Of a stretch of DNA of 64,000 nt, positions 35,896 to 46,541 are shown piece by piece. The stretch comes from Rhizohabitans arisaemae (GTDB taxonomy: Bacteria; Actinomycetota; Actinomycetes; Streptosporangiales; Streptosporangiaceae), in NCBI RefSeq assembly GCF_025996515.1, contig NZ_BLRH01000034.1:992001-1056000 (forward strand), read 5' to 3'. Within the stretch, counting starts at the first letter, position 1, and each line of letters opens with the position of its first letter. Made by a program: the position numbers and the translations under genes. The notes under the pieces were generated by a model. That model saw only the letters and a list, made by a program, of their open reading frames with translations. It ran no database searches and was not told the DNA's origin.

Positions 35896-37106
35896 CCACC
35901 TCGTCAACGGTCGTCACCCCCGACGTGCGTGCGGTACGGCGTGCGCGGATCGCGGTGTACGGGTACTTCATCCTCGCCGGGGCCCTGATCGGGGTCTGGA
36001 CCGCGCGCATCCCCACGATCAAACAGGATCTCGGCCTCAGCGAAGGCCAGCTCGGCATCGCGCTCCTCGGCATGGCGGCCGGCGCCCTCACCGCCACCTT
36101 CGCCGTGGGCCGGCTCATCGACCGGTTCGGCAGCGCCCGGATCGTGGTCCCGGCCGGAGTCATCGGCTCGCTCCTGCTCGCGGCGCCCGGCTACGCGGGG
36201 AACGTCGGCGGCCTGTTCGCCGCGCTCTTCATCCTCTGCGTCATGCACAGCTCACTCGACGTGTCCATGAACGCCCACGCCGTCGAGGTGGAGCGCGCCC
36301 ACGGACGTCCCCTCATGTCCTCCTTCCACGCGGGCTTCAGCCTCGGCGGGTTCCTCGGCGCGGTCGCCGGAGCCCTCTTCGCCTCCCTGGGCGCCTCCGT
36401 CCCGGTGACGTTCTGGACGGCGGGCATCCTCTCCGCCGTGATATGCCTGCTCATCGGCCGGTTGCTGCTCCCCCGCACCGCCTCCCCGCACCAGGAGCCC
36501 AAAGCCAGGCCGGGAGGACGGCGCCTCAACGTCGGGGTGGTCCTGCTCGGCGGGCTCGCGCTCGCCGCGATGGTCAGCGAGGGCTCGGCCGCCGACTGGA
36601 GCGGGATCTACCTCTACGAGGACCTGAACGCCTCCGCAGGCCTGGCCGCCATGGGGTTCGCGGTGTTCTCCATCGCCATGACCGCCGGGCGGCTCGCCGG
36701 GGACCGGCTCGCCGAACTGCTCGGACCGGTACGGCTGGTGCGCGGCAGCGGCCTGCTCGCCGCCGCCGGACTCACCTTCGCCCTCCTGGTCGGGGAACCC
36801 ATCCCGGCGTTGATCGGCTTCGTCCTGTTCGGCTTCGGACTCGCCTGCATCGTGCCCCAGGTCTTCTCCGCGGCCGGGAACCGCGACCCGGCCCGCGCCG
36901 GGCAGGCCATCGCCCAGGTCGCCGGGATCGGCTACGCGGGCTTCCTCGGCGGACCCATCCTGATCGGCCTGGTCGCCGAGGTCACCGGCCTCCCCCTCGC
37001 CCTCGGCATCCCCGTCCTGCTCTCCCTCTTCGTCGTCGCGGCGGCCCCCGCCGTCCGGGGCGACCGGGCGGGCGGCCAAGCCCGGTCTGGGGGTGAGCCG
37101 GCCTGA
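35892..37106 (+). CDS. MFS transporter (YbjJ/FucP-like), DeoR-coupled
   Basis: A 404-residue protein with 12 hydrophobic segments. Features include YGYFILAGALIGVWTARIPTIKQDLGLSEGQLG, RLIDRFGSARIV (motif A) and SSFHAGFSLGGFLGAVAGA, typical of the YbjJ-like branch of MFS (sugar or unknown substrates). ATG 35892 overlaps the DeoR stop, showing translational coupling. A sugar-type substrate is inferred only from the regulator. Confidence 0.88.
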   Translation: MTTSSTVVTPDVRAVRRARIAVYGYFILAGALIGVWTARIPTIKQDLGLSEGQLGIALLGMAAGALTATFAVGRLIDRFGSARIVVPAGVIGSLLLAAPGYAGNVGGLFAALFILCVMHSSLDVSMNAHAVEVERAHGRPLMSSFHAGFSLGGFLGAVAGALFASLGASVPVTFWTAGILSAVICLLIGRLLLPRTASPHQEPKARPGGRRLNVGVVLLGGLALAAMVSEGSAADWSGIYLYEDLNASAGLAAMGFAVFSIAMTAGRLAGDRLAELLGPVRLVRGSGLLAAAGLTFALLVGEPIPALIGFVLFGFGLACIVPQVFSAAGNRDPARAGQAIAQVAGIGYAGFLGGPILIGLVAEVTGLPLALGIPVLLSLFVVAAAPAVRGDRAGGQARSGGEPA

Positions 37107-37704
37107 CCCCATAGTTCGCAGACCGTCCGCGAGTTCTCCGCGGATCCGCCGCCCGCGATCGGCGGGGAAGGCCTCCCCGCTCACCGCGGTGGCCCGGCCT
37201 CAAGCCCAGCCCGATCCGTGCCCGGGATCGGATCGACCGGCCGCAGGCCGTACCACCACCGTGGCATCCGCCGAGGATCGGCGGGCAACGGATCGAAACG
37301 GGCGCGCGAGAACGGCAACCCCACGGCCGGGCGAAAGGGTGTCCTCGGCGCGCCCGATCCATCGGCCCGGCACGCGGCACCGAGCCGACCGGCTTCCGGC
37401 TGACAGCACCCGCTGAAGCCGGTCCGCGGACCGGCGATTCGATCCGGCATGCCTTCACCTGGCCGGACAGCACCTGACATCCGGTGTCACAGCGTTCGGC
37501 CACGTCCGGACACCCGTTCAACGGCTCCGCTCGACGCCGCTTCGCCGAGAAGGTCCGCGGATCCACACCCGACGGCCGCCGGAACGCCCCGGCGTGAGTT
37601 CCTGCCGCCATGCCGCCGACGGCAAGCACCCCGGCCGGGGCGGACCACACCGACGTACGAGCGACCGATTCGGGCTGTCCAGACCCCACCGCAACCCGGA
37701 AGAG
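37107..37704. other. Gene-free region with inverted repeats
   Basis: Six hundred bases without a supported gene; open frames on both strands are arginine/proline-rich with no ribosome site. It contains CCGATCC/GGATCGG (about 37209-37229) and a perfect 16-bp palindrome CCGGTCCGCGGACCGG (37419-37434). It may include the terminator of the MFS gene. Confidence 0.5.
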
Positions 37705-37809
37705 ATGACCGACATTGAAGACCGACTCCACGAAAAGACGGAGCCCCGCGCGAAGCACGGCCACCTCGCCCAGGCGACACCGAGATCGCCTGAACGTGAA
37801 CACCGCTGA
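37705..37809 (+). CDS. 34-codon ORF resembling the N-terminus of the next gene
   Basis: GGAAGAG precedes ATG 37705. The peptide begins MTDIEDRLHEKTEPRAKHG, which parallels the start of the next protein (MSSVKDRLREATGAKDG), and then stops where that protein enters its membrane helix. It could be the truncated 5' end of a duplicated copy or a small companion peptide. Confidence 0.4.
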   Translation: MTDIEDRLHEKTEPRAKHGHLAQATPRSPEREHR

Positions 37810-37861
37810 ATCCCCGGCCGTGACGGCCATGTCCGTACTCCACCATGAACGGGAGACACCA

Positions 37862-38497
37862 ATGTCCAGCGTCAAGGATCGACTCCGTGAGGCGACGGGC
37901 GCGAAGGACGGCGACGAGAAGCCGCCGCAGAGACACCGTGAGCTCCGGATCATCCTGACCGGAACGGTCGGCGTCGCCCTGGCCGCCGTCGGGACGGCGT
38001 GCGGGGTCGTACAGCCGGCGTCCTCCGCCGCGGAACCACGGCAGCAGGTCATCATGTCGCTCCTCGGTGCCGCGCCACCGCTGGACAGAGGGGTCCGGAT
38101 CTTCCTCTGCACCGCGGCCGACGGCCGTCACGCCTGCGCGGCGACGGCGGCCACCGAGTCGGAGAAGGAGTCCGTCCGGCAGCTGCTCACCGCCCGCCCC
38201 GACGTGAAGACCGTCACCTTCGAGTCCCGGGGGCAGGCCTACGAGCGCCTCCGCCAGGCGTCCGCCGACAATCCCGGCCAACCGCCCGCGGAGGAGAACC
38301 TACCCGAGTCGTTTCACGTCCGGCTTGCGGATGGTGCCGACACTTCGGCTTTGGCCAGGGCGGTAAGCGGGCTGCCCGGGGTCTTGCTCAGCGTCGACCA
38401 GTCCTGCCTGATCGAGGCGGCGGGCTCCTCCACGTCGGGAAGAAGGGCACTCACCGAGGCGAGCGCACTCTGCTCCTTCCCCGGCAAGGGCCGCTGA
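37862..38497 (+). CDS. Stand-alone FtsX-type extracellular domain protein
   Basis: A 211-residue protein. Residues 1-28 are charged and cytoplasmic, 29-46 form one membrane helix, and the rest is an ectodomain resembling the extracellular loop of FtsX. Matching elements are the strand RIFLCTAADGRHACA (Cys83/Cys92 like the FtsX disulfide), TESEKESVRQLLTARPDVKTVTFESRGQAYERLRQ, and LPESFHVRLADGADTSALARAVSGLPGV. The four-helix permease part of FtsX is absent and no FtsE is adjacent. GGGAGA at 37851-37856 supports ATG 37862. FtsX ectodomains bind peptidoglycan hydrolases such as RipC, so this could be a decoy or an additional hydrolase adaptor (inference). Confidence 0.75.
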   Translation: MSSVKDRLREATGAKDGDEKPPQRHRELRIILTGTVGVALAAVGTACGVVQPASSAAEPRQQVIMSLLGAAPPLDRGVRIFLCTAADGRHACAATAATESEKESVRQLLTARPDVKTVTFESRGQAYERLRQASADNPGQPPAEENLPESFHVRLADGADTSALARAVSGLPGVLLSVDQSCLIEAAGSSTSGRRALTEASALCSFPGKGR

Positions 38498-38551
38498 CCG
38501 GCCGGGCTCGGTGGTGACGGGGCAGTCCCGTCACCACCGGGGTCGACGACC

Positions 38552-38863
38552 CTAGCAGGGGTACGCGTCTCTGGGGTTCACCGAAAGGGCACCGCCGACA
38601 TAGAAATCGGCTCTGCTGTAGGAGCCAATCCACTTGCAGTCGGGGTCCGGCGCAGCCGGTACATCCACGCTGGCCCGGCCGGCGAAGTTGCATGCGTTGT
38701 ATACCTGCGCATACTTGAGGGGGTGGCCGGCGGGGCCTTCCGTCCATATGCGCGTAATGGTGAAACATCCGCGAGCCGACGCGGGACTCGCCGGGATCAG
38801 CAGCAGTGCCGCGACGGTGACCGCCGCTCCTGCCGCAGCCACCATCTTCCTGGCGGTGTTCAT
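38552..38863 (-). CDS. Small secreted cysteine-containing protein
   Basis: A 103-residue exported protein: MNTARKMVAAAGAAVTVAALLLIPASPASA signal peptide with cleavage after ASA, then about 73 residues with four cysteines (GCFTIT, YNACNFAG, DPDCKW, final YPC). ATG 38863 is preceded by a CGAGGG site; an upstream in-frame ATG would add nine residues. Unknown function. Another secreted protein gene follows the same strand 270 bases upstream. Confidence 0.7.
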   Translation of the reverse strand: MNTARKMVAAAGAAVTVAALLLIPASPASARGCFTITRIWTEGPAGHPLKYAQVYNACNFAGRASVDVPAAPDPDCKWIGSYSRADFYVGGALSVNPRDAYPC

Positions 38864-39134
38864 CCCTCGTGAAATGCGCTGGTCATGCATGTGTTCTCCT
38901 CAGGTCCCGATGTACAGCGCGGTTCCCGCACTGTCATGCGATCGCTCTTGCCTGTTTTGTCGTGATGGCTCATGACCACTGCGGTGGGTGGTGGTCCGGG
39001 CCGTCGGCCGGTCAGGAGGGGACAGCGCCCCTTCCGCGGTTCCAGCCGGTCACCCACAAGCTGCCTTTGGCCGAGCCGGTCGATACATTCCCCGTCCCGC
39101 TACCCCGGCGGGTCCTCATGCCGACTGGAGCGGT

Positions 39135-39599
39135 TCAGCAGGGCGAGGTGCTGTTCTGAGCAAGGATGTGCGCCTCTGCCCCGTCCCCGACCTTGACCCA
39201 AAGTGCCGATTTTCCCCTTCGGTCGTAGGTACGCCACAAACCGGCCCCGGGGAGGAACCTCACCCTGTAACACCACCCGGCGTCCACTCGGAAAGCGTCC
39301 CAATCCTGGCCACCCGGAGTGCGCCCCCCTGAGCCGATGTAGTAGGTGTTCTGTGGCTGGCCTTTGTCGTTGTTGCACGTCGGTTCGCGGTCAGTCGAGG
39401 CGCCCGTAATGTCGCGTGCCCTACACCAGTTGAAGTAGGCCAGTGCCCCCAGCGGGCTGTCGTTGAACGTCGCCGAGCAGCCCGCCCACGAACAGCTGCC
39501 TGCGAACGCAGCGTCCGTCGGAAGCACCACCAGCGCTGTGGAACCGAGCAGCATCGCAGCGAACGTGCGACCGCGACGCAAAGCGTTGTGGTTTCGCAT
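39135..39599 (-). CDS. Secreted cysteine-rich protein
   Basis: A 154-residue protein with a signal peptide (MRNHNALRRGRTFAAMLLGS, core to about residue 29, cleavage after AFA) and a mature part with six cysteines (CSWAGC, NWCRARD, TCNND, GWCYRV, final SPC) and aromatic clusters. GGGAGA lies ahead of ATG 39599. No recognised family; an extracellular protein, perhaps an antimicrobial or binding protein. The 250 bases upstream contain its promoter. Confidence 0.7.
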   Translation of the reverse strand: MRNHNALRRGRTFAAMLLGSTALVVLPTDAAFAGSCSWAGCSATFNDSPLGALAYFNWCRARDITGASTDREPTCNNDKGQPQNTYYIGSGGRTPGGQDWDAFRVDAGWCYRVRFLPGAGLWRTYDRRGKSALWVKVGDGAEAHILAQNSTSPC

Positions 39600-39845
39600 A
39601 CTCCGTTCTCCCTTGATTTCTGGTCCACATAGGGACGTCTCCACATAGAGACGTCGCACCGACCGAATACATCCCCTTTCTGGATGAGAGTCGCATTCGG
39701 CGCATTTCCCGTTTTCGCCGTTGATTTCGGCGCTTTGAGAGTGCTGAACCACATGGCGCCGGCACAAGTGATTTGCGTCCCGGCTGGCGCCTGGGATGAG
39801 AAACTTGGCCGGACCTGTACTGATTCCCCGGCCTGGGACGCGAGG

Positions 39846-41537
39846 ATGCACAACAGGGATGAGAAGGTGTCGGAGCTGGCCGCGCTCTTGCACTCACTGA
39901 AGGAACGGAGCAGCCGCAGCTACGCGGAACTCGCCGGCCGCTGTGGCGCCAGCACCTCCACATTGCATCGGTACTGCCGGGGTCAGGTCCTGCCGGACAG
40001 CTACGGAATGGTGGAGCGGATAGCGCTGGCCTGCGGGGCCAGCAAGGCGGAGCTGGCGGAGTTGTACCGGCTGTGGGCCCAAGCCGATGCGGGCCGCCTC
40101 GATGCGGGCCGCGCCCCCGTCACCGACGATCCCCAGCTCCCGGCGGTGGCTCCCGCACCCGCCGCTTCGCACCCCCGGGACCCGGTGTCCGCATCCGCCG
40201 TGCACGGCCGGCGGCCCGCCCGCTCCGGCCGCAGGACGATACGCTTCATCGCCCTCGCCTGCGTCCTGGCCGCCGCGATGGTCATCGGTGCGAGTGCTTC
40301 CTCTCCGGACCGGCGGACCTCCGGGCGTCCGACGCCGCAATTGATCCCCGGCCCGGCCTGGTCGCAGCCGCCCGCCCCGGTACCCGCGGAGTTCTACGGC
40401 GTCACGATCAACAGCGACAGCGGCGCCATGCCGACCTTCCGGGTCGGCGGGATCCGGTTGTGGGACAGCGAAACCCTCTGGTCCCTGCTCCAACCCGCGC
40501 GCAACCGGTTCGACTGGACCACCCTGGACCGCCTCGTCGGCTCCGCCCGCCGCGCGAACCTCCCCGTGCTCTACACCTTCGGCGGCACGCCGCAATGGGC
40601 TGCGCCGGGCGCGCCACTCGGCCCCTACCCCGGCGGGTCACGCACGGCGCCACCCGATGATCTGAAGGACTGGATCCGCTTCGTCAAGGCCGTCGCGACC
40701 CGATACGCGGGCCGGATCGACGCATACGAACTGTGGGCGTTCGCGCCCTCACCGCACTTCTACACGGGCGACGCCGCGACGCTGGCCCGCATGACCCAGC
40801 AAGCCGCCGCGGTCATCCGCCGCGCCGATCCGGCCGCGACCCTGGTGTGCCCCTCGATCGGGAACCTGTGGGAGCAGGCCTCCCAGCGGTTCCTGCGCGA
40901 CTTCGCCGCCGCCGGCGGGTACCAGGCGTGCGACGTCGCAGGTGTGAAACTCGCCCCGCAGCACGACGGCGACACCCCCGAGAGCCTCGTCCGTCTCGCG
41001 GCCGTCATCGACCGCACGTTCCATGAGGCCGGGGTGCATCCGCGGCTGTGGAGCACCGGGACCGTCTACCGAATCGCCCAAGACCGCAAACTGGACCAGG
41101 CGCGCGCCATCGCGTACGCGGTGCGCTTCTACCTGATCGGGATGTACGTGCGATACGACCGCATGTACTTCTACAACTGGGGCGGCACCAAGATCCCGCT
41201 GGTGCTTCAGGCCGTGGGCGGACCGCCGACCGCCGCGGCCCACGCGGTGGACACGCTCCAGCGCTGGCTGGCAGGCGCCCGCATCACCTCCTGTGGCAAC
41301 GGCCGGCCCGACGGGCTGCCGTCACAGGTCTGGCAATGCCAATTCGTCCTGGCCGGTGCGGACGGCCGGGAACCTGTCCGGGCCATCGTCCGGTGGACCG
41401 AATCGGGCACGGTCTCGATGCCGGCCGATCGGGGCGCCGACACCGTCCGATTCCTGGACGGACGCTCGATGCCCGCCCCGCATACGGTGCAGATCACCGA
41501 ACAGCCGATACTGATCACCATCCACCCGGGCCGCTGA
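39846..41537 (+). CDS. Transmembrane XRE regulator with glycosidase-like (GH39-type) ectodomain
   Basis: A 563-residue protein. Residues 9-65 are an XRE/HTH domain (YAELAGRCGASTSTLHRYCRG), 66-130 a proline/alanine linker, 131-150 one membrane helix, and about 180-470 a TIM-barrel like GH39 glycosidases (LLQPARNRFDWTTLDRLVGSARRANLPVLYTFGGTPQWAA). A C-terminal beta-sandwich follows. In active enzymes the acid/base is in WNEP; here that place reads ELWAFAPS, and the nucleophile strand reads RLWSTGT, so both catalytic glutamates seem lost. That suggests a carbohydrate-sensing receptor whose cytoplasmic domain binds DNA. In-frame ATGs further upstream are possible; 39846 gives the most compact HTH. 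Confidence 0.75.
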   Translation: MHNRDEKVSELAALLHSLKERSSRSYAELAGRCGASTSTLHRYCRGQVLPDSYGMVERIALACGASKAELAELYRLWAQADAGRLDAGRAPVTDDPQLPAVAPAPAASHPRDPVSASAVHGRRPARSGRRTIRFIALACVLAAAMVIGASASSPDRRTSGRPTPQLIPGPAWSQPPAPVPAEFYGVTINSDSGAMPTFRVGGIRLWDSETLWSLLQPARNRFDWTTLDRLVGSARRANLPVLYTFGGTPQWAAPGAPLGPYPGGSRTAPPDDLKDWIRFVKAVATRYAGRIDAYELWAFAPSPHFYTGDAATLARMTQQAAAVIRRADPAATLVCPSIGNLWEQASQRFLRDFAAAGGYQACDVAGVKLAPQHDGDTPESLVRLAAVIDRTFHEAGVHPRLWSTGTVYRIAQDRKLDQARAIAYAVRFYLIGMYVRYDRMYFYNWGGTKIPLVLQAVGGPPTAAAHAVDTLQRWLAGARITSCGNGRPDGLPSQVWQCQFVLAGADGREPVRAIVRWTESGTVSMPADRGADTVRFLDGRSMPAPHTVQITEQPILITIHPGR

Positions 41538-41551
41538 CACCCCGGCGCCTA

Positions 41552-41675
41552 CTCCGTCCGCGATGAGGTGCTCGGACAGGTGCGCGAGGATCGTCGACCT
41601 GCCCGCGCCGGACGGCCCGTCGATTGAGCTGAACAGCCCTCGTCGACGGTCGGAAAAGGGCCGGAGCCGGGTCAT
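41552..41675 (-). pseudogene. dTMP kinase 5' fragment
   Basis: Starts MTRLRPFSDRRRGLF like the intact gene at 44145-44813, then diverges after about 41 codons. Lys to Arg in Walker A would abolish nucleotide binding. Confidence 0.8.
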
Positions 41676-41725
41676 CGGGCTCTTCCTTTCCCAGCAGGCC
41701 GAGCAGCGTCAGCCCTGGGTCGTTG
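41552..41725. repeat. 174-bp direct repeat, left copy (truncated dTMP kinase 5' end)
   Basis: Matches 44690-44863 without gaps at an offset of 3138 bases with few substitutions. It contains the start (41675, minus strand) and first 41 codons of the dTMP kinase gene plus its upstream bases. The Walker A lysine is changed (GPSGAGRST). Downstream of 41552 the kinase frame runs into unrelated sequence, so it is a pseudogene fragment. Confidence 0.9.
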
Positions 41726-41845
41726 CGGAAGATCGAAGACGTTCCGTACGGCTCATCCGCATACTGGGCATCAACGGGACACGCGCCCTCTGGACAGGGC
41801 GAGAGCCGACTACGCCGGGCATCCGGCGGGAGAGAGGGCCGACCA

Positions 41846-43048
41846 ATGACCCGGTGGAGCGACTATACGACCGGCGAGCGGATCAAAATTCTGCGCGCGG
41901 AGATGACCCAGGAACAGCTCGCCGAGGCGGCCGAACTGTCGATCGCGACAATCCGCAAGGTCGAGCGAGACCTGGGGGTTGGACTTCCGTCCCTCTTGAG
42001 GATCTCGGCCGTGCTGCACACGGACGTGTCGGTGGTGCTCGGCCAGCAGGAGCCCCGTCGAGCGATGCGCCGCGACGACCGGGCGATGCTGCGAGAGCTC
42101 TCGCGGGCTGTCCACGACACCGCGGCCGGGGTCGTCGGCGACCTTGAGCCCGTATCCGTCGGCGAGGTGCAGGCCGGGCTCGTGGCGGCGTGGGACCGGT
42201 ACCGCGCCGGACAGTACGCCACGGCGGGCGCGTTGGTGGCCATCGCCGTACGGCAGGCCGCGGCCGTCGCCCATACGATGCCTGCAGGAAAGGAAGGGGC
42301 AGCCGCGTCGACGATGGCCGACGCGTTCCGGCTGGCGGCTTACGTCGCCAACCAATTCGGCGCCCGCGACCTGGCCTACGCCGGAATCGGACATGCCGCC
42401 GCGCAGGCCGATCTCGCGGGCGATGTGGTGCGGTCGGCCATGGTCACTTCGGGTCGGTCGTGGATCTACCTGCGGGACGCCCGGCTCGATCAGGCGTCGG
42501 TCACGGCCGAACGCTCCTATCTGATGATCGAGCCCCGCTACAGCGACAACGATCCCCAGCTGCTGGCCACCTACGGGTGGCACGTGACGTTCGCTGCGGT
42601 CGTGGCGGCCCGCGACGGGGACGTGGCGCGAGCCGACGACCTGCTCTCCCAAGGGCACGCTGTCGCGGCGAGAATCGGCCGGGACGTGTCGGTCAACGGG
42701 ACGGCGTTCGGCCCGGCGACCGTCCATGCCCAAGCCGTCGGCCTCCAGGTGTCGACCGGACGGCCCGGCAAGGCCCTGGAGACCTACGCCGCGATGGGCG
42801 ATATCTCCGCCCTCACCCCCGCAGCCCGCAACCGGCTCCACCTCGACGTCGCCCTCGCCCTCGCCGAGACCCGCCAATGGGACGCCTCCCTCGACACCTT
42901 GCTGGAGGTATGCACCGCCAATCCCGACTGGGCCCGCCACCAGGCGCTCCCCGACGTCATCGCCCGCCGCGCCCAACACGCCAACCCCACCGCTTCCCGC
43001 TACCGCAAACTCGCCGCGATCCTCGGTACCTCGCGCTCCGGCCACTGA
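41846..43048 (+). CDS. XRE-family regulator with TPR-like C-terminal region
   Basis: A 400-residue protein. The HTH (residues about 10-65) reads RIKILRAEMTQEQLAEAAELSIATIRKVER, followed by about 320 residues of alanine-rich helices with TPR-like pairs (AAWDRYRAGQYATAGALVAIAV, DAFRLAAYVANQFGARDLAYAGIGHAA, ALAETRQWDASLDTLLEVC). This layout is common in Streptomyces XRE regulators. GAGAGAGGGC precedes ATG 41846. It lies convergent with the radical SAM operon, between the 174-bp repeats. Confidence 0.85.
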   Translation: MTRWSDYTTGERIKILRAEMTQEQLAEAAELSIATIRKVERDLGVGLPSLLRISAVLHTDVSVVLGQQEPRRAMRRDDRAMLRELSRAVHDTAAGVVGDLEPVSVGEVQAGLVAAWDRYRAGQYATAGALVAIAVRQAAAVAHTMPAGKEGAAASTMADAFRLAAYVANQFGARDLAYAGIGHAAAQADLAGDVVRSAMVTSGRSWIYLRDARLDQASVTAERSYLMIEPRYSDNDPQLLATYGWHVTFAAVVAARDGDVARADDLLSQGHAVAARIGRDVSVNGTAFGPATVHAQAVGLQVSTGRPGKALETYAAMGDISALTPAARNRLHLDVALALAETRQWDASLDTLLEVCTANPDWARHQALPDVIARRAQHANPTASRYRKLAAILGTSRSGH

Positions 43049-43199
43049 CCGTGCTCTCCGGTTGATACGTCCGTATCACGGTGGACGCGGGCAACCTGTC
43101 TCCGGTGCTACGCGCCCTTTCCGCAAAGTGATCTTGAAAACCCTCTTCACATGCCCGCAGGCACTCCGCCGCCTCGTGATCAATTGGCAATCAATCGTC

Positions 43200-43316
43200 C
43201 TAGCGGCGTCTGCGGACCGAGTCGGCTTCCCGGACCCGTTGATAGACGATCCAGGCGAGGAATTCGGTGAAGAAGGTGGCCGGAATGGCCGTCCGGGTCC
43301 AGCCGAGTACACCCAT
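43200..43316 (-). CDS. 38-residue single-TM peptide
   Basis: MGVLGWTRTAIPATFFTEFL begins a 38-residue protein with one hydrophobic segment and a basic tail DSVRRRR. GGAGG lies eight bases before ATG 43316 inside the AKR 3' end, and the ATG is two bases from the AKR stop. It looks like the last gene of the operon; too short for confident family assignment. Confidence 0.5.
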   Translation of the reverse strand: MGVLGWTRTAIPATFFTEFLAWIVYQRVREADSVRRRR

Positions 43317-43318
43317 GG

Positions 43319-44161
43319 CTAGGCCTCCGAGGCGAGTGTGGAGGGCAGAGCGCCCGGCAGGTCGAGGTGACGTGCTTGGACGTTCTCCCGGAGATGAGCG
43401 GTGTTGGAAGTTCCGGGGATCGGGATGATGACGGGAGATCGGTGGAGAAGCCACGACAGCGCGAGCTGTCCTCCGGTGGCCTTCGTGCCATCGCAGGGTG
43501 CGATCGGATCGGGATCGGTGAGACGGCCCTTGCCGAGCGGGTGGTAGGGGATGAAGCCGATGCCGTGGTCGGTGCAGTAGCCGAGGACGTCTTCGCCGGC
43601 GTGGTCTTCGCGGTTGAAGGCGTTCTGGATGGTGGTGATCTCGGCGAGTCCGCGTGCGGCCTCGATGGTTTCGATGCTGACTTTGGACAGCCCCAGATGA
43701 CGGATCTTCCCCTCACGTTGGAGGTCAGCGAGTGTCCCGAGCTGGTCGTCCAGCGGCACAAGGGGGTCGACTCGGTGAAGCTGGTAGAGGTCGATCGTGT
43801 CGAGCCGGAGGCGTCGCAGGCTCATTTCGGTGCACTGCCGTAGGTATTCGGGGCGTCCGCAGGGTGCCCACCTGTCCGGCCCCTGCCGGGTCAGGCCGCC
43901 TTTTGTGGCGATGACGAGCCCGGCGGGGTAGGGGTGGAGCGCCTCGGCGATCAGACGCTCGCTGACGTGGGGTCCGTACGCGTCGGCGGTGTCGAGGAAG
44001 TTCACGCCGAGTTCGACAGCGATGCGCAGTACTAGAAGCGCTTCGTCCTTGTCGGCGGGTTCTCCCCAGGTTCCCGGCCCGGTGAGGGACATGGTTCCCA
44101 GGCCAAGGCGGTTGACGGGGAGGTCTCCCCCGATGAGGAACGTGTCACCTGGTCCGGTCAT
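43319..44161 (-). CDS. Aldo/keto reductase
   Basis: A 280-residue (alpha/beta)8 AKR. Catalytic tetrad: Asp and Tyr in NFLDTADAYGP, Lys in VIATKGG, His in LYQLHRVDP. NADPH loop GQLALSWLLHRSPVIIPIPGTS. The natural substrate is unknown. It overlaps the end of the dTMP kinase gene by 17 bases and so belongs to the radical SAM-exonuclease-kinase operon. Confidence 0.88.
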   Translation of the reverse strand: MTGPGDTFLIGGDLPVNRLGLGTMSLTGPGTWGEPADKDEALLVLRIAVELGVNFLDTADAYGPHVSERLIAEALHPYPAGLVIATKGGLTRQGPDRWAPCGRPEYLRQCTEMSLRRLRLDTIDLYQLHRVDPLVPLDDQLGTLADLQREGKIRHLGLSKVSIETIEAARGLAEITTIQNAFNREDHAGEDVLGYCTDHGIGFIPYHPLGKGRLTDPDPIAPCDGTKATGGQLALSWLLHRSPVIIPIPGTSNTAHLRENVQARHLDLPGALPSTLASEA

Positions 44162-44813
44162 GTGAGGTCTCCTGGTCGGGAACGGCGAAGAATGCCTGGA
44201 GCCGGTCACGGATGATCTGAGCGAGCTGATCGGGGGCCTTGTTCGCGCAGTCGACCCTCAGGACGTCGTATCCCGCTTGGATGAGGCGGTCGCACGCCTG
44301 CCGGTAGAAGTGGGATTCGGCTTGGGAGGAGCCGGGTGCGAGCTGGAAGCGGTTGTGTGCTCCGCGGGACTCCAGGCGGGCGGCGATCGTCTGCGGGTCG
44401 GCTTCAAGGACGACGGCCAGGTCAGGGTGGTCAGCGTGGACGTTCAGGCTCCATAGGAAGGCGGGGTCGACCCCGTCGAAGCGCTGCATGACCAGGCCGG
44501 ATGGTACGTACCGGTCGCAGAGGACGATCTCGCCGGTCTCCAGCCGAGGCTGGATCTCGCGTTCGAGGTGGTGGTAGCGGTCTGCGCTATACAGGCAGGC
44601 GAGGGCCGGTCCGCTGACGGTCTCGGTGAGGTCGCGGGCGAGCGCTCCGATGGGTCCGGTGGACGGCTCGGCAGTCGTATGGACCTGCTCTCCGTCTGCG
44701 ATGAGGAGCTGGGAAAGGTGCGCGAGGATCGTCGACTTGCCCGCGCCGGACGGCCCGTCGATCGAGATGAACAGCCCTCGTCGACGGTCAGAAAAGGGCC
44801 GGAGCCGGGTCAT
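44145..44813 (-). CDS. Thymidylate kinase-like P-loop kinase
   Basis: A 222-residue protein of the TMP kinase superfamily. Walker A GPSGAGKST, the DRY-type motif in CDRYVPSGLVMQRFDG, the LID-type RLESRGAHNRFQ and strand DLAVVLEADPQTI. A dTMP kinase essential for metabolism would usually sit elsewhere and be about 200-215 residues; here it is embedded in an operon with a radical SAM enzyme and an exonuclease, so a modified-nucleotide role is possible. It overlaps the exonuclease gene by 26 bases. Its first 41 codons are duplicated at 41552-41725. Confidence 0.82.
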   Translation of the reverse strand: MTRLRPFSDRRRGLFISIDGPSGAGKSTILAHLSQLLIADGEQVHTTAEPSTGPIGALARDLTETVSGPALACLYSADRYHHLEREIQPRLETGEIVLCDRYVPSGLVMQRFDGVDPAFLWSLNVHADHPDLAVVLEADPQTIAARLESRGAHNRFQLAPGSSQAESHFYRQACDRLIQAGYDVLRVDCANKAPDQLAQIIRDRLQAFFAVPDQETSHDRTR

Positions 44814-44863
44814 CGGGCTCTTCCCTTCCCAGCAGGCCGAAAAGCGTCAGCCCTGGATCGTTG
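44690..44863. repeat. 174-bp direct repeat, right copy (within the intact operon)
   Basis: The functional source of the copy at 41552-41725: it covers the first 41 codons of the dTMP kinase gene and the last part of the exonuclease gene. The two copies bracket the XRE/TPR gene, the AKR gene and most of the kinase gene. Confidence 0.9.
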
Positions 44864-45384
44864 TGGGAGGTGGCCAGGCGAACGAGGAGCCGGGCGCAGA
44901 CGATCGCGTCGTAGGCGGCTCGGTGTGGGTGCAGGTCGGGGGCGATGTCCTCGGCCAGGCCGAAGGCGTCGACGAGGTTTCCGAGCTTGTAGGAGACCTG
45001 ACCGGGCGCCAGGCGGCGGGCGGCCTTCAACGTGTCGACTACCTCGATCGGGCTGAAGCCCGGCAGCGAGCGGGTCACCACGTCGAGATCGACGTGCGCA
45101 TTGTGGGCGACGAAGACCGCGTCGTCGAGCTCTTTGCGGATCTCGTCGGCGACGTCGGCCACGGCTGGCGCTGCCGCCACCTCCTCGTCTCCGATCCGGT
45201 GGAAGCGCCGCGCCATCGAGGTGATCGGTCGCGGCGGCTGCACCAGCCACGAGCGGGGCTCGCCGACGATCCCGTTCTCGATCGGGACGATGGCGATCTC
45301 AACGAGGTCCGGCGGGCGCTGGCCGTTGCCTTCGACGTCTACGACCGCGTAGCGGTGACTGGTCCAGGGCTTCTCTGTGGTCAT
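44788..45384 (-). CDS. DnaQ-like 3'-5' exonuclease
   Basis: A 198-residue DEDD-type exonuclease. Exo I reads VVDVEGNGQRPPDLVEIAIV (Asp-x-Glu), Exo II VFVAHNAHVDLDVV, and Exo III HPHRAAYDAIVCARLL with the DEDDh histidine. It would remove nucleotides from 3' ends or degrade single-stranded nucleic acid. ATG 45384 overlaps the radical SAM stop (ATGA). Confidence 0.88.
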   Translation of the reverse strand: MTTEKPWTSHRYAVVDVEGNGQRPPDLVEIAIVPIENGIVGEPRSWLVQPPRPITSMARRFHRIGDEEVAAAPAVADVADEIRKELDDAVFVAHNAHVDLDVVTRSLPGFSPIEVVDTLKAARRLAPGQVSYKLGNLVDAFGLAEDIAPDLHPHRAAYDAIVCARLLVRLATSHNDPGLTLFGLLGREEPDDPAPALF

Positions 45385-46541
45385 GCGGGCTGTTCCCATC
45401 CGATCTCGGCGCGTCCATGGCGGTTGAGCAGGTGTGGATGAGCGGCGTCGTGGATCTGGAAGGCGAACCGGTGCTGGAGGAAGTACCGTGGTTGCTCGTC
45501 CGGGAGTCCTTCGACCTGCGCGGCCCGCTCTGTGACGTCGAGCACCTTCAACCCTGCCGCCTCGGGCAGGTCCACGATGGCTTCTTGAAGCTGACGTGCC
45601 GTGGGAATGTTGTGCGCTCCCGCGCAGAGCTGGAGCTGTCGGACCGGACAGATGTCGCAGAGCTCGCGAATGCCGTAGTGGCCGTTGTAGTCCGGGAGAC
45701 CGTGAGCGTAGGCCACGGCGCACGAGGTCTTGCGAAACAGCACGGCCGACCTGTCCGCATGAGCGAACGCCTCAAGGACCCGCTGCTCCAGCGTCTCGGG
45801 CACGATCTTGCGGCGGGCGGTGCCCTCGTAGGGCTCGGGCAGGTTGTTCGCCTTGTAGTAGTCGGCAATCTCTCCCCGGTAGAACAGCCCGGTGAAGACG
45901 GCGGCGTCAGCGTACTTGGACAACTCGGCCGCTGCGGCGAGGTGCTCCGGGCTGTCGTTGAGGCCGGGCACGAGTGGGCGCCAGTAGAAGACCGTCCGGT
46001 AGCGGCGCGGACGCAGGTCGCTCGCGAGCTTCATGGACACCGCCGCGACGATGGAGTTGAAGGGCTCGATGCGTTTGTCGGTGATGCCGGAATAGGTGAA
46101 CAGCAGGGTGACCTTCAGGTTCGCCAGCGTGTTCAGCCTCTCGCGGTCCTCGGGTTTCAGCATGAACCGGGTGATGATCAGGATGTGATTGGTCAGGCCG
46201 CGCCCGTCGAGGTCACCCAGGCACGCGAACAGGTGGTCCTTCACCCCGGGCAGTAGCGGATCGGTCGCCCGGTTGAAGATCTGCAAGGGAGTCGTGTGCG
46301 GCCGGAAGTAGCGGTGTCCCACCAGCAGCTCGACGGCCTCCGCGTCCGACATCAGCGCGGTCGGCTTGCGGGAGTCCCACAGGCCGTATGTGTGCCGGAT
46401 GCAATACGCGCAGTCCAGCGGACAGCCCTGGACATGGTTGAGGGACAGCCCGGACTTGCGGTACTCCACGACCTCCTGTGCGCGGGGTGGCAACGCGGCC
46501 ACGGCGGAGGGTTCGAGGAGGGGGACAATTACCTTGCTCAC
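45381..46541 (-). CDS. Radical SAM protein with extra C-terminal cysteines
   Basis: A 386-residue radical SAM enzyme. The [4Fe-4S]-SAM motif is CPLDCAYC (CxxxCxxC) in HVQGCPLDCAYCIRHTYGLW, followed by ALMSDAEAVELLVGH and the barrel strands HILIITRFML and KVTLLFTYSG. The C-terminal region has a further cluster-like CDICPVRQLQLC. Start: GGAGG is six bases before GTG 46541, a better fit than the ATG at 46559. The family is spore-photoproduct-lyase-like or a nucleic-acid-modifying rSAM by context; the precise reaction is unknown. It heads the operon rSAM-exonuclease-kinase-AKR-small TM. Confidence 0.85.
   Translation of the reverse strand: MSKVIVPLLEPSAVAALPPRAQEVVEYRKSGLSLNHVQGCPLDCAYCIRHTYGLWDSRKPTALMSDAEAVELLVGHRYFRPHTTPLQIFNRATDPLLPGVKDHLFACLGDLDGRGLTNHILIITRFMLKPEDRERLNTLANLKVTLLFTYSGITDKRIEPFNSIVAAVSMKLASDLRPRRYRTVFYWRPLVPGLNDSPEHLAAAAELSKYADAAVFTGLFYRGEIADYYKANNLPEPYEGTARRKIVPETLEQRVLEAFAHADRSAVLFRKTSCAVAYAHGLPDYNGHYGIRELCDICPVRQLQLCAGAHNIPTARQLQEAIVDLPEAAGLKVLDVTERAAQVEGLPDEQPRYFLQHRFAFQIHDAAHPHLLNRHGRAEIGWEQPA

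What the first reader, a model, noticed from the sequence alone, without database searches (positions are those of the whole stretch)
39846..41537. One-piece transmembrane regulator with an apparently dead glycosidase ectodomain
An XRE DNA-binding domain is fused through a membrane helix to a GH39-like barrel. The acid/base motif WNEP reads WAFAP and the nucleophile glutamate is also absent. A catalytically dead barrel outside the cell and an HTH inside suggest a polysaccharide receptor controlling transcription directly.
Basis: partly seen in the sequence, partly recalled or inferred. Interest (0 to 1): 0.7.

Follow-up and report, generated by a model that had tools for sequence, protein, structure and literature searches.

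The report
Membrane gene switch with dead glycosidase
An actinobacterium carries a one-piece switch, a DNA-binding part joined through the membrane to a sugar-cutting-enzyme fold that has lost its cutting residues, and its relatives suggest that this dead enzyme serves as a portable sensor plugged into different signalling parts.

Summary
The gene encodes an HTH_31 domain, one membrane helix and a PslG/GH39-type barrel. PslG E165 aligns with F299 and E276 with G405. This is a whole clade: 40 distinct regulator-type proteins (36 from the window's own family) lack both glutamates, and the 34 relatives kept as enzymes have both; none kept has only one. The nearest enzymes (three genomes) are encoded directly downstream of the regulator. 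In relatives the same dead barrel is joined to other cytoplasmic parts: a SARP activator (5 of 41 proteins scanned) or a Ser/Thr kinase (1 of 41), against HTH_31 in 32 of 41. The ectodomain is under purifying selection. Best reading: a transmembrane one-component regulator whose pseudo-glycosidase is the receptor; a glycan ligand is inferred, not shown. A gene of one of two small-protein families lies near 25 of 36 such loci (22 judged adjacent) and is the likeliest local target, though profiles were partly seeded there. An oriented motif, TGGGACG, is enriched upstream. The start is probably GTG 39867, not ATG 39846. The class (TTRs) is known; my searches found no description of a pseudo-glycosidase sensor with swapped outputs. 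Verdict: new variant of a known kind.

The parts
39867..41537 (+).
   Evidence: start codon from the alignment of orthologues
39873..40064 (+). HTH_31 (Cro/C1/XRE-type) DNA-binding domain, residues 10-73 in 39846 numbering
   Evidence: PF13560, E=2.5e-14; pLDDT blocks 85-98 up to residue 80
40245..40301 (+). Single membrane helix, residues 134-152, preceded by basic residues
   Evidence: Hydropathy scan; such a stretch lies 12-31 residues before the barrel in 39 of 41 family members; helix 134-147 in the model, at low confidence
40359..41525 (+). PslG/GH39-type barrel plus C-terminal beta part, residues 172-560
   Evidence: AlphaFold2 model; VIA-align Z 33.7 to PslG 9g17_A, model range 170-560
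40740..40742 (+). Acid/base position: Phe299 (WAFAP for WNEP)
41058..41060 (+). Nucleophile position: Gly405 (WSTG for WSTE)
39730..39866 (+). Upstream block conserved in two orthologues whose other neighbours differ; holds TGGGACG at 39834-39840 and CGTCCC at 39776-39781
39634..39655 (.). Perfect inverted repeat GACGTCTC-6-GAGACGTC in front of the divergent small-protein gene; the only exact copy in the genome; candidate operator, weak evidence
   Evidence: 1 of 60 shuffles as good
39135..39599 (-). Divergent gene for a 154-aa protein with signal-peptide-like start (family A, DWDAFRVDAGWCY); likeliest local target
   Evidence: all-beta model pLDDT 83.7, no PDB match with E<=0.001

Best explanation
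It is a single-pass transmembrane one-component transcription regulator. The N-terminal HTH_31 domain lies in the cytoplasm; the C-terminal PslG/GH39-type barrel lies outside and has become a receptor after losing both catalytic glutamates. Most likely a cell-surface or environmental glycan (or a fragment of one) binds the old active-site groove. Binding changes the oligomeric state or the membrane proximity of the HTH, or triggers proteolytic release, and so changes transcription of the regulator itself and of the adjacent small secreted-protein gene. Borne out by computation: the architecture, the loss of both glutamates across the clade, kinship with intact-site glycosidases of which the nearest are encoded next door in three genomes, different output domains in relatives, purifying selection, recurrent small-protein neighbours, and an enriched upstream motif. 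Inferred: direction of the change (enzyme to receptor), topology, ligand class, DNA target, and the way the signal crosses the membrane.
For: Architecture and fold. Glutamates absent in the clade, present in enzyme relatives; PslG residue mapping. Tree of 74 ectodomains: 40 regulator-type rows form one clade (SH-aLRT 99), sister to three tandem enzyme paralogues (100); SARP forms branch first (84 and 92, not starred), HTH forms are nested, and the kinase form lies inside the HTH group (quick method, no bootstrap). Outputs: HTH_31 in 32 of 41, BTAD+Trans_reg_C in 5 of 41, Pkinase in 1 of 41. 64 columns invariant in 41 rows, among them R204, W206, D207, W251, W297, Y441, Y443, W445 and cysteines 335, 362, 483, 498; that the aromatic and charged ones line the groove is inferred from their places in the motifs, not measured. 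dN/dS, window versus L004 and L039: ectodomain 0.21 and 0.30, HTH 0.17 and 0.19, linker 0.49 and 0.74; four other pairs: ectodomain 0.14-0.36, HTH 0.19-0.41. Small-protein gene of family A or C near 25 of 36 HTH/kinase/truncated-type loci. TGGGACG in 15 of 28 regulator upstream regions against 51 of 637 control regions, 19 sense to 3 antisense.
Against: No ligand, DNA target or expression data. Topology rests on hydropathy and basic residues alone. The own-genome paralogue (L002/L087) and 10 other of the 36 loci have no family A/C neighbour. With the window's own small protein as sole query in 200 genomes, 14 hits have E<1e-10 and only 3 (one the window itself) lie at such a regulator, so these proteins also live alone. 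Profiles A1 and A7 were seeded only, and A6 partly, from regulator loci: 8 of the 10 adjacent hits and all 6 are seeds. Not every neighbour has a signal peptide in my gene calls (L069, L077, L086, L180, L186). The upstream motif was picked from the regions in which it was then tested; it also occurs before 4 of 14 other HTH-TM regulators and 6 of 29 family A/C genes at other loci. Two members (L005, L056) have lost HTH and membrane helix. One fragment (L190) has Asp, not Gly, at the nucleophile column.
Confidence: 0.62

Rival explanations
1. The ectodomain is a receptor, but for a protein (a secreted partner, a cell-wall enzyme or an inhibitor) and not for a glycan; the dead barrel works as a protein-binding decoy.
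For: Small-protein genes of families A/C lie beside 22 of 36 loci (with for adjacency), and dead enzymes often become protein-binding scaffolds (general knowledge). The fold hits of the window's small protein are all insignificant, but include a thaumatin-like xylanase inhibitor (E=0.73).
Against: Ectodomains 89-93% alike sit beside unlike small proteins (family A in the window, family C in L068) or beside none (L067), which does not suit a fixed receptor-ligand pair. Aromatic and charged residues of the barrel motifs are invariant.
Confidence: 0.25
2. The barrel is still an enzyme that uses other residues or needs only one carboxylate, and the protein is a membrane-tethered hydrolase with a DNA-binding tail.
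For: Fold is kept; E295 next to the site is invariant.
Against: Acid/base column L, F, M, Y, V, N, T or S and nucleophile column Gly in all 40 regulator-type rows kept for the tree. E295 lies four residues before the acid/base position; relatives with intact WNEP also have Glu or Gln there, so it is not the catalytic position.
Confidence: 0.05
3. It works like RodZ: an HTH-membrane-ectodomain protein in which the HTH binds proteins, not DNA, and the role is in wall or cell-shape assembly.
For: Same overall order HTH - TM - ectodomain (RodZ recalled, not tested).
Against: In sister proteins the HTH place is taken by a SARP activator, a dedicated transcription module; a shared upstream motif hints at DNA binding.
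Confidence: 0.06
4. A decaying gene fusion without function.
For: Two members have lost HTH and TM (L005, L056) and some genomes hold broken copies (L173, L186, L187, L190).
Against: dN/dS 0.2-0.3 in the window's ectodomain; regulator-type genes, broken ones included, in 36 of 345 genomes of the order (40 genomes with a hit, less G481, G506, G527 and G663, whose hits I took as enzyme-type).
Confidence: 0.02

Closest known systems
Transmembrane transcription regulators (TTRs; ToxR, CadC and the general class in PMC10269533)
   Same: One polypeptide with a DNA-binding domain and a membrane segment; single pass is the commonest type (abstract, outline and Results part 1 read).
   Different: The passages read name no glycosidase-like ectodomain; the terms glycos, XRE and BTAD do not occur in that paper's main text. 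Its supplements were not seen.
RsgI anti-sigma factors of Clostridium thermocellum
   Same: Extracellular carbohydrate-binding or glycosidase (GH10) domain, one TM helix, cytoplasmic control of transcription (passages of PMC12203970).
   Different: RsgI acts by holding a sigma factor; here a DNA-binding domain is fused directly. Pfam finds HTH_31, no RsgI domain, and the barrel here lacks its catalytic residues.
PslG / GH39 glycosidases
   Same: Ectodomain fold, Z 33.7 over 363 residues; significant profile match (E=3.5e-11).
   Different: Both catalytic glutamates missing; attached to a regulator; PslG is an enzyme whose activity needs E165 and E276 (passages of PMC9075953).
Heparanase 2 (dead relative of heparanase 1)
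   Same: A dead glycosidase; the listed abstract start says it lacks catalytic activity (PMC12406646, search listing only). Heparanase structures are among the fold matches.
   Different: Animal protein, not a bacterial membrane regulator (recalled).
HTH_31-TM regulators with other ectodomains in actinobacteria (L010-L016, L018, L019, L026, L061, L062, L225, L232)
   Same: Same HTH subfamily (E 1e-24 to 6e-30 with a profile of the HTH domains here) followed by a hydrophobic helix; L225 and L232 are also divergent from a family C protein.
   Different: Ectodomains differ: short Cys-containing domain (L061, L062, L225, L232), a domain without a Pfam match, or PG_binding_1 with a sub-threshold lysozyme-like match (L011).

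Membership tests
Transmembrane transcription regulators (TTR) | Recognised DNA-binding domain | tested here: met
   HTH_31 E=2.5e-14 over cut-off
Transmembrane transcription regulators (TTR) | At least one transmembrane region in the same polypeptide | tested here: met
   Hydropathy 2.25 at residue 134; similar stretch in 39 of 41 relatives. No dedicated topology program was available
Transmembrane transcription regulators (TTR) | Controls transcription from the membrane in response to outside signals | not testable with these tools
   Needs experiment
Glycoside hydrolase family 39 (active enzyme) | GH39/PslG-type (beta/alpha)8 fold | tested here: met
   Z 33.7 to PslG, 32.1 to GH39 5jvk
Glycoside hydrolase family 39 (active enzyme) | Acid/base glutamate in WNEP-type motif | tested here: not met
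   Phe299
Glycoside hydrolase family 39 (active enzyme) | Nucleophile glutamate on strand 7 | tested here: not met
   Gly405
Glycoside hydrolase family 39 (active enzyme) | Pfam PF01229 match over cut-off | tested here: not met
   No PF01229 hit up to E=1 for the window protein; at E<=0.001 it matches 1 of 41 relatives
RsgI-type anti-sigma factor | N-terminal sigma-binding RsgI domain | tested here: not met
   Pfam up to E=1 shows only HTH-type families and a weak GH42 match
RodZ | MreB-binding HTH and role in cell shape | not tested
   Recalled only; no RodZ model was matched

The most novel reading that the evidence does not exclude
A glycosidase, duplicated beside its regulator, lost its chemistry once and became a portable outside sensor that has since been plugged into three unrelated cytoplasmic outputs (SARP activator, XRE/HTH_31 regulator, Ser/Thr protein kinase), reporting the state of a surface polysaccharide and driving small secreted proteins. 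It would be a bacterial pseudo-enzyme receptor family with its working enzyme ancestor still next door in three genomes.
Probability: 0.45. Interest if true: 0.78.

Novelty: new variant of a known kind. Interest (0 to 1): 0.66.

Why it matters
How single-piece membrane regulators act from the membrane is poorly understood (PMC10269533 abstract), and many of their ectodomains have no known ligand (recalled). Here the ectodomain has a structural relative solved with a bound pentasaccharide (PslG 9g17), an intact-site sister enzyme encoded next to it in three genomes, and natural changes of the output part. That makes ligand, signal transfer and the turning of a dead enzyme into a receptor directly testable in actinobacteria.

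Tried and rejected
Start at ATG 39846: rejected, not conserved in orthologues. The first block alignment suggested that L058-L060 and L066 lacked the nucleophile; the later alignment shows VTE, so they are Glu/Glu. Single-protein searches gave weak glycosidase signals only. Conserved synteny other than the small proteins: nothing consistent for the HTH type. Inverted-repeat operators shared between loci: none common; the window repeat was equalled in 1 of 60 shuffles, L076 and L178 have longer repeats of other sequence, and most other divergent pairs have none that stands out. Fold of the window's small protein: no PDB match with E<=0.001. Small and lipoprotein neighbours (ten tested) in Pfam and NCBIfam: nothing over a cut-off. 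Family A members away from regulators: none of the 15 loci fetched (L124-L131, L135-L141) holds a pseudo-glycosidase; one (L128) lies next to a large HTH protein with an ATPase-like part, named from memory. Rfam over 36000-46000: nothing at gathering thresholds. Papers: no description of such regulators in the listings (open-access PMC library only; one search returned nothing).

Rows left out: the tree left out L186, L187, L190 (fragments), L001 (copy of the window) and 17 rows with profile score under 170, of which 8 are Glu/Glu and 9 have Glu at the first site and a gap at the second. Enzyme rows were labelled by having both Glu, so that label is by definition; no kept row had only one. L189 is identical to L006, so the 41 rows are 40 proteins. 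L185 starts near a contig end, so its upstream neighbour is unknown. In one search a short G663 hit (C45) and weaker hits in G439 (C55) and G527 (C91) were not looked at. Gene calls are from my own codon-usage script, which misses small genes and trims starts. Motif regions run 280 bases back from the HTH-domain start, controls from called starts; controls hold some near-duplicate loci.

Full report
What was checked. The ORF at 39846-41537 (+) exists and encodes 563 residues. Pfam finds HTH_31 at residues 10-73 well over its cut-off and only a sub-threshold Glyco_hydro_42 match for the rest. The genome has 8.3 Mb. The closest named orthologues are in Sinosporangium siamense and Microbispora catharanthi, so I take it as Streptosporangiaceae (inference; taxonomy not looked up). 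It has one full paralogue, 53% identical, at C33:1303730.

Start codon. Alignment of the upstream DNA with two orthologues shows that GTG 39867 lines up with TTG and ATG, whereas ATG 39846 does not, and that indels break a shared frame upstream. About 140 bases before the gene are conserved between these genomes although the neighbouring genes differ; this looks like a regulatory region that travels with the gene (inference).

Fold. An AlphaFold2 model from a 29-row alignment has mean pLDDT 84.4 and pTM 0.71. HTH and barrel are confident; residues 89-133 and 147-161 are not. VIA-align on Foldseek's best chains puts PslG first (9g17_A, Z 33.7, rmsd 2.8, 363 residues, 17% identity), then GH39 5jvk (Z 32.1), then other glycosidases at 27.8 and below. 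Foldseek alone puts three PslG entries and 5jvk in its first four places.

Catalytic residues. A profile of 20 ectodomains matches PslG with E=3.5e-11, aligning WNEP with ELW-x-x and WSTE with W-S-T-G. The two PslG glutamates are 111 apart in the chain, which fits E165 and E276, named as key residues in passages of PMC9075953. In the window these are Phe299 and Gly405. Over the fetched relatives all 40 full-length regulator-type rows have L, F, M, Y, V, N, T or S at the first site and Gly at the second; one fragment (L190) has Asp at the second. The 34 other rows kept for the tree have Glu at both. Seventeen distant rows were dropped: 8 are Glu/Glu and 9 have Glu and a gap.

Evolution. In a quick maximum-likelihood tree of 74 ectodomains the 40 regulator-type rows form one clade (SH-aLRT 99), whose sister is three Glu/Glu proteins (100). 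Those three are encoded directly downstream of a SARP-type regulator in G577, G691 and G727. The SARP forms branch first (84 and 92, not starred), the HTH forms are nested, and the kinase form pairs with an HTH form (88). So one loss of catalysis beside the parent enzyme, then change of outputs, is the simplest reading; the root is by midpoint, so direction is inferred.

Outputs. Pfam on 41 regulator-type proteins (two of them identical): HTH_31 in 32, BTAD and Trans_reg_C in 5, Pkinase in 1. By subtraction, and, the other three are L005 and L056, which lack HTH and TM, and L168, whose SARP part lies in another frame (L173 is the same locus). The kinase form is L174:7324-9507 (Pkinase E=6.6e-37). 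A hydrophobic stretch lies 12-31 residues before the barrel in 39 of 41, often after basic residues, which fits an inside N-terminus.

Constraint. 64 columns are invariant in 41 rows, among them R204, W206, D207, W251, W297, Y441, Y443, W445 and four cysteines. dN and dS for window against L004 are 0.038 and 0.184 (ectodomain), 0.040 and 0.236 (HTH), 0.239 and 0.490 (linker); against L039, 0.059 and 0.194, 0.070 and 0.378, 0.261 and 0.352. Four other pairs give ratios of 0.14-0.36 (ectodomain), 0.19-0.41 (HTH) and 0.42-1.2 (linker). The dead barrel is thus kept by selection about as firmly as the HTH.

Neighbourhood. The window gene is divergent from a gene for a 154-residue protein with a signal-peptide-like start (39135-39599). 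Its family (A) and another (C, with a DGGxTW motif; Asp-box-like, recalled) lie near 25 of 36 HTH-, kinase- or truncated-type loci. I judge 22 directly adjacent; L074 holds only a fragment, and L076 and L183 lie 1-2.5 kb off. The eleven without are L007, L009, L067, L084, L087, L174, L176, L177, L184, L185 and L187. Some neighbours have no signal peptide in my gene calls (L069, L077, L086, L180, L186). Genome-wide, profile A1 has 18 hits at E<1e-5 in 20 genomes, 10 of them beside the regulator, of which 8 are its own seeds. Profile A7 has 21 at E<1e-5 in 22 genomes, 6 beside it, all seeds. With the window protein alone as query in 200 genomes, 14 hits have E<1e-10; besides the window itself two of the other 13 lie at such a regulator. 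Regulators are rare: 20 of the 200 genomes, from 25 with a hit at E<=1e-20 less two with an HTH-only match (G475, G536) and three enzyme-only (G481, G506, G527). So the link is more than chance but loose. Ectodomains 89-93% alike lie beside family A (window), family C (L068) or neither (L067), which favours the small proteins as targets over their being the ligand. SARP loci L080, L083, L172, L173 and L175 have a lipoprotein-like gene downstream (c54; L172, L173 and L175 judged by eye); L008 has family A.

Wider module. The same HTH subfamily is followed by a TM helix and other ectodomains in genomes of another family (f3) and in Streptosporangiaceae. Two of these (L225, L232) are divergent from family C genes, and the own genome has a broken HTH remnant beside a family C gene (L133). 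So the pseudo-glycosidase looks like one of several sensors on a modular membrane regulator.

DNA signal. Among 28 regulator upstream regions (27 non-redundant plus the window) TGGGACG occurs in 15, against 51 of 637 upstream regions of other genes in the same loci (Fisher p=2.6e-9 before correction; the motif was chosen from the same regions out of 8,192 words, so roughly 2e-5), and 19 of 22 copies run in the regulator's sense. Window and L068 share one site by descent. It also occurs before 3 of 16 family A and 3 of 13 family C genes at other loci and 4 of 14 other HTH-TM regulators. It could be the operator or a promoter element. The window also has a perfect 8-base inverted repeat at 39634-39655 before the small-protein gene, unique as an exact copy in the genome; 1 of 60 shuffles equalled it, so it is only a lead.

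Literature. TTRs are a described and widespread class (PMC10269533: abstract, outline, Results part 1). RsgI anti-sigma factors sense polysaccharides with CBM or GH10 domains and signal by proteolysis (PMC12203970: passages). I found no paper on a pseudo-glycosidase fused to HTH_31, SARP or kinase in the listings; the library holds open-access papers only.

Verdict. The regulator reading is well supported by architecture and by the changes of output domain; the glycan ligand and the DNA target remain inferences.

Noticed in passing
window 38552-38890 (-): Second small protein gene (112 aa ORF, Cys-containing, signal-peptide-like start) near the first; no Pfam or NCBIfam match up to E=1.
   Followed up: no
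window 41552-41731 and 44690-44869: 180-base direct repeat, 92% identical: the start of a gene at 44145-44813 (-), thymidylate-kinase-like by eye, is duplicated just behind the regulator gene.
   Followed up: partly
L083, L172, L173 (G577, G691, G727): Operon-like order SARP-TM-pseudo-glycosidase, Glu/Glu glycosidase, lipoprotein-like gene; G727's SARP part is in a different frame.
   Followed up: yes
L174:7324-9507 (G708): Ser/Thr protein kinase fused to the same dead barrel.
   Followed up: partly
L005:5890-7224 and L056:1447-2847: Two members without HTH and membrane helix, each beside a family A gene.
   Followed up: partly
L225, L232, L061, L062: HTH_31-type TM regulators with a short Cys-containing ectodomain (ACSMGLAxDPxxKY); L225 and L232 are divergent from a family C gene.
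   Followed up: partly
L011:1444-2718: HTH_31 regulator with PG_binding_1 and a sub-threshold lysozyme-like match outside: another cell-wall-enzyme-like ectodomain.
   Followed up: no
L177:5127-6815: SARP (Trans_reg_C+BTAD) fused to an AraC-type HTH, divergent from an HTH pseudo-glycosidase regulator.
   Followed up: no
L133:4851-5849 (G000:C34): Family C gene beside a broken HTH remnant in the window's own genome.
   Followed up: partly
L183:5203-5631 (G665): Peptidase inhibitor I36-type gene (over Pfam cut-off) near an HTH pseudo-glycosidase regulator.
   Followed up: no
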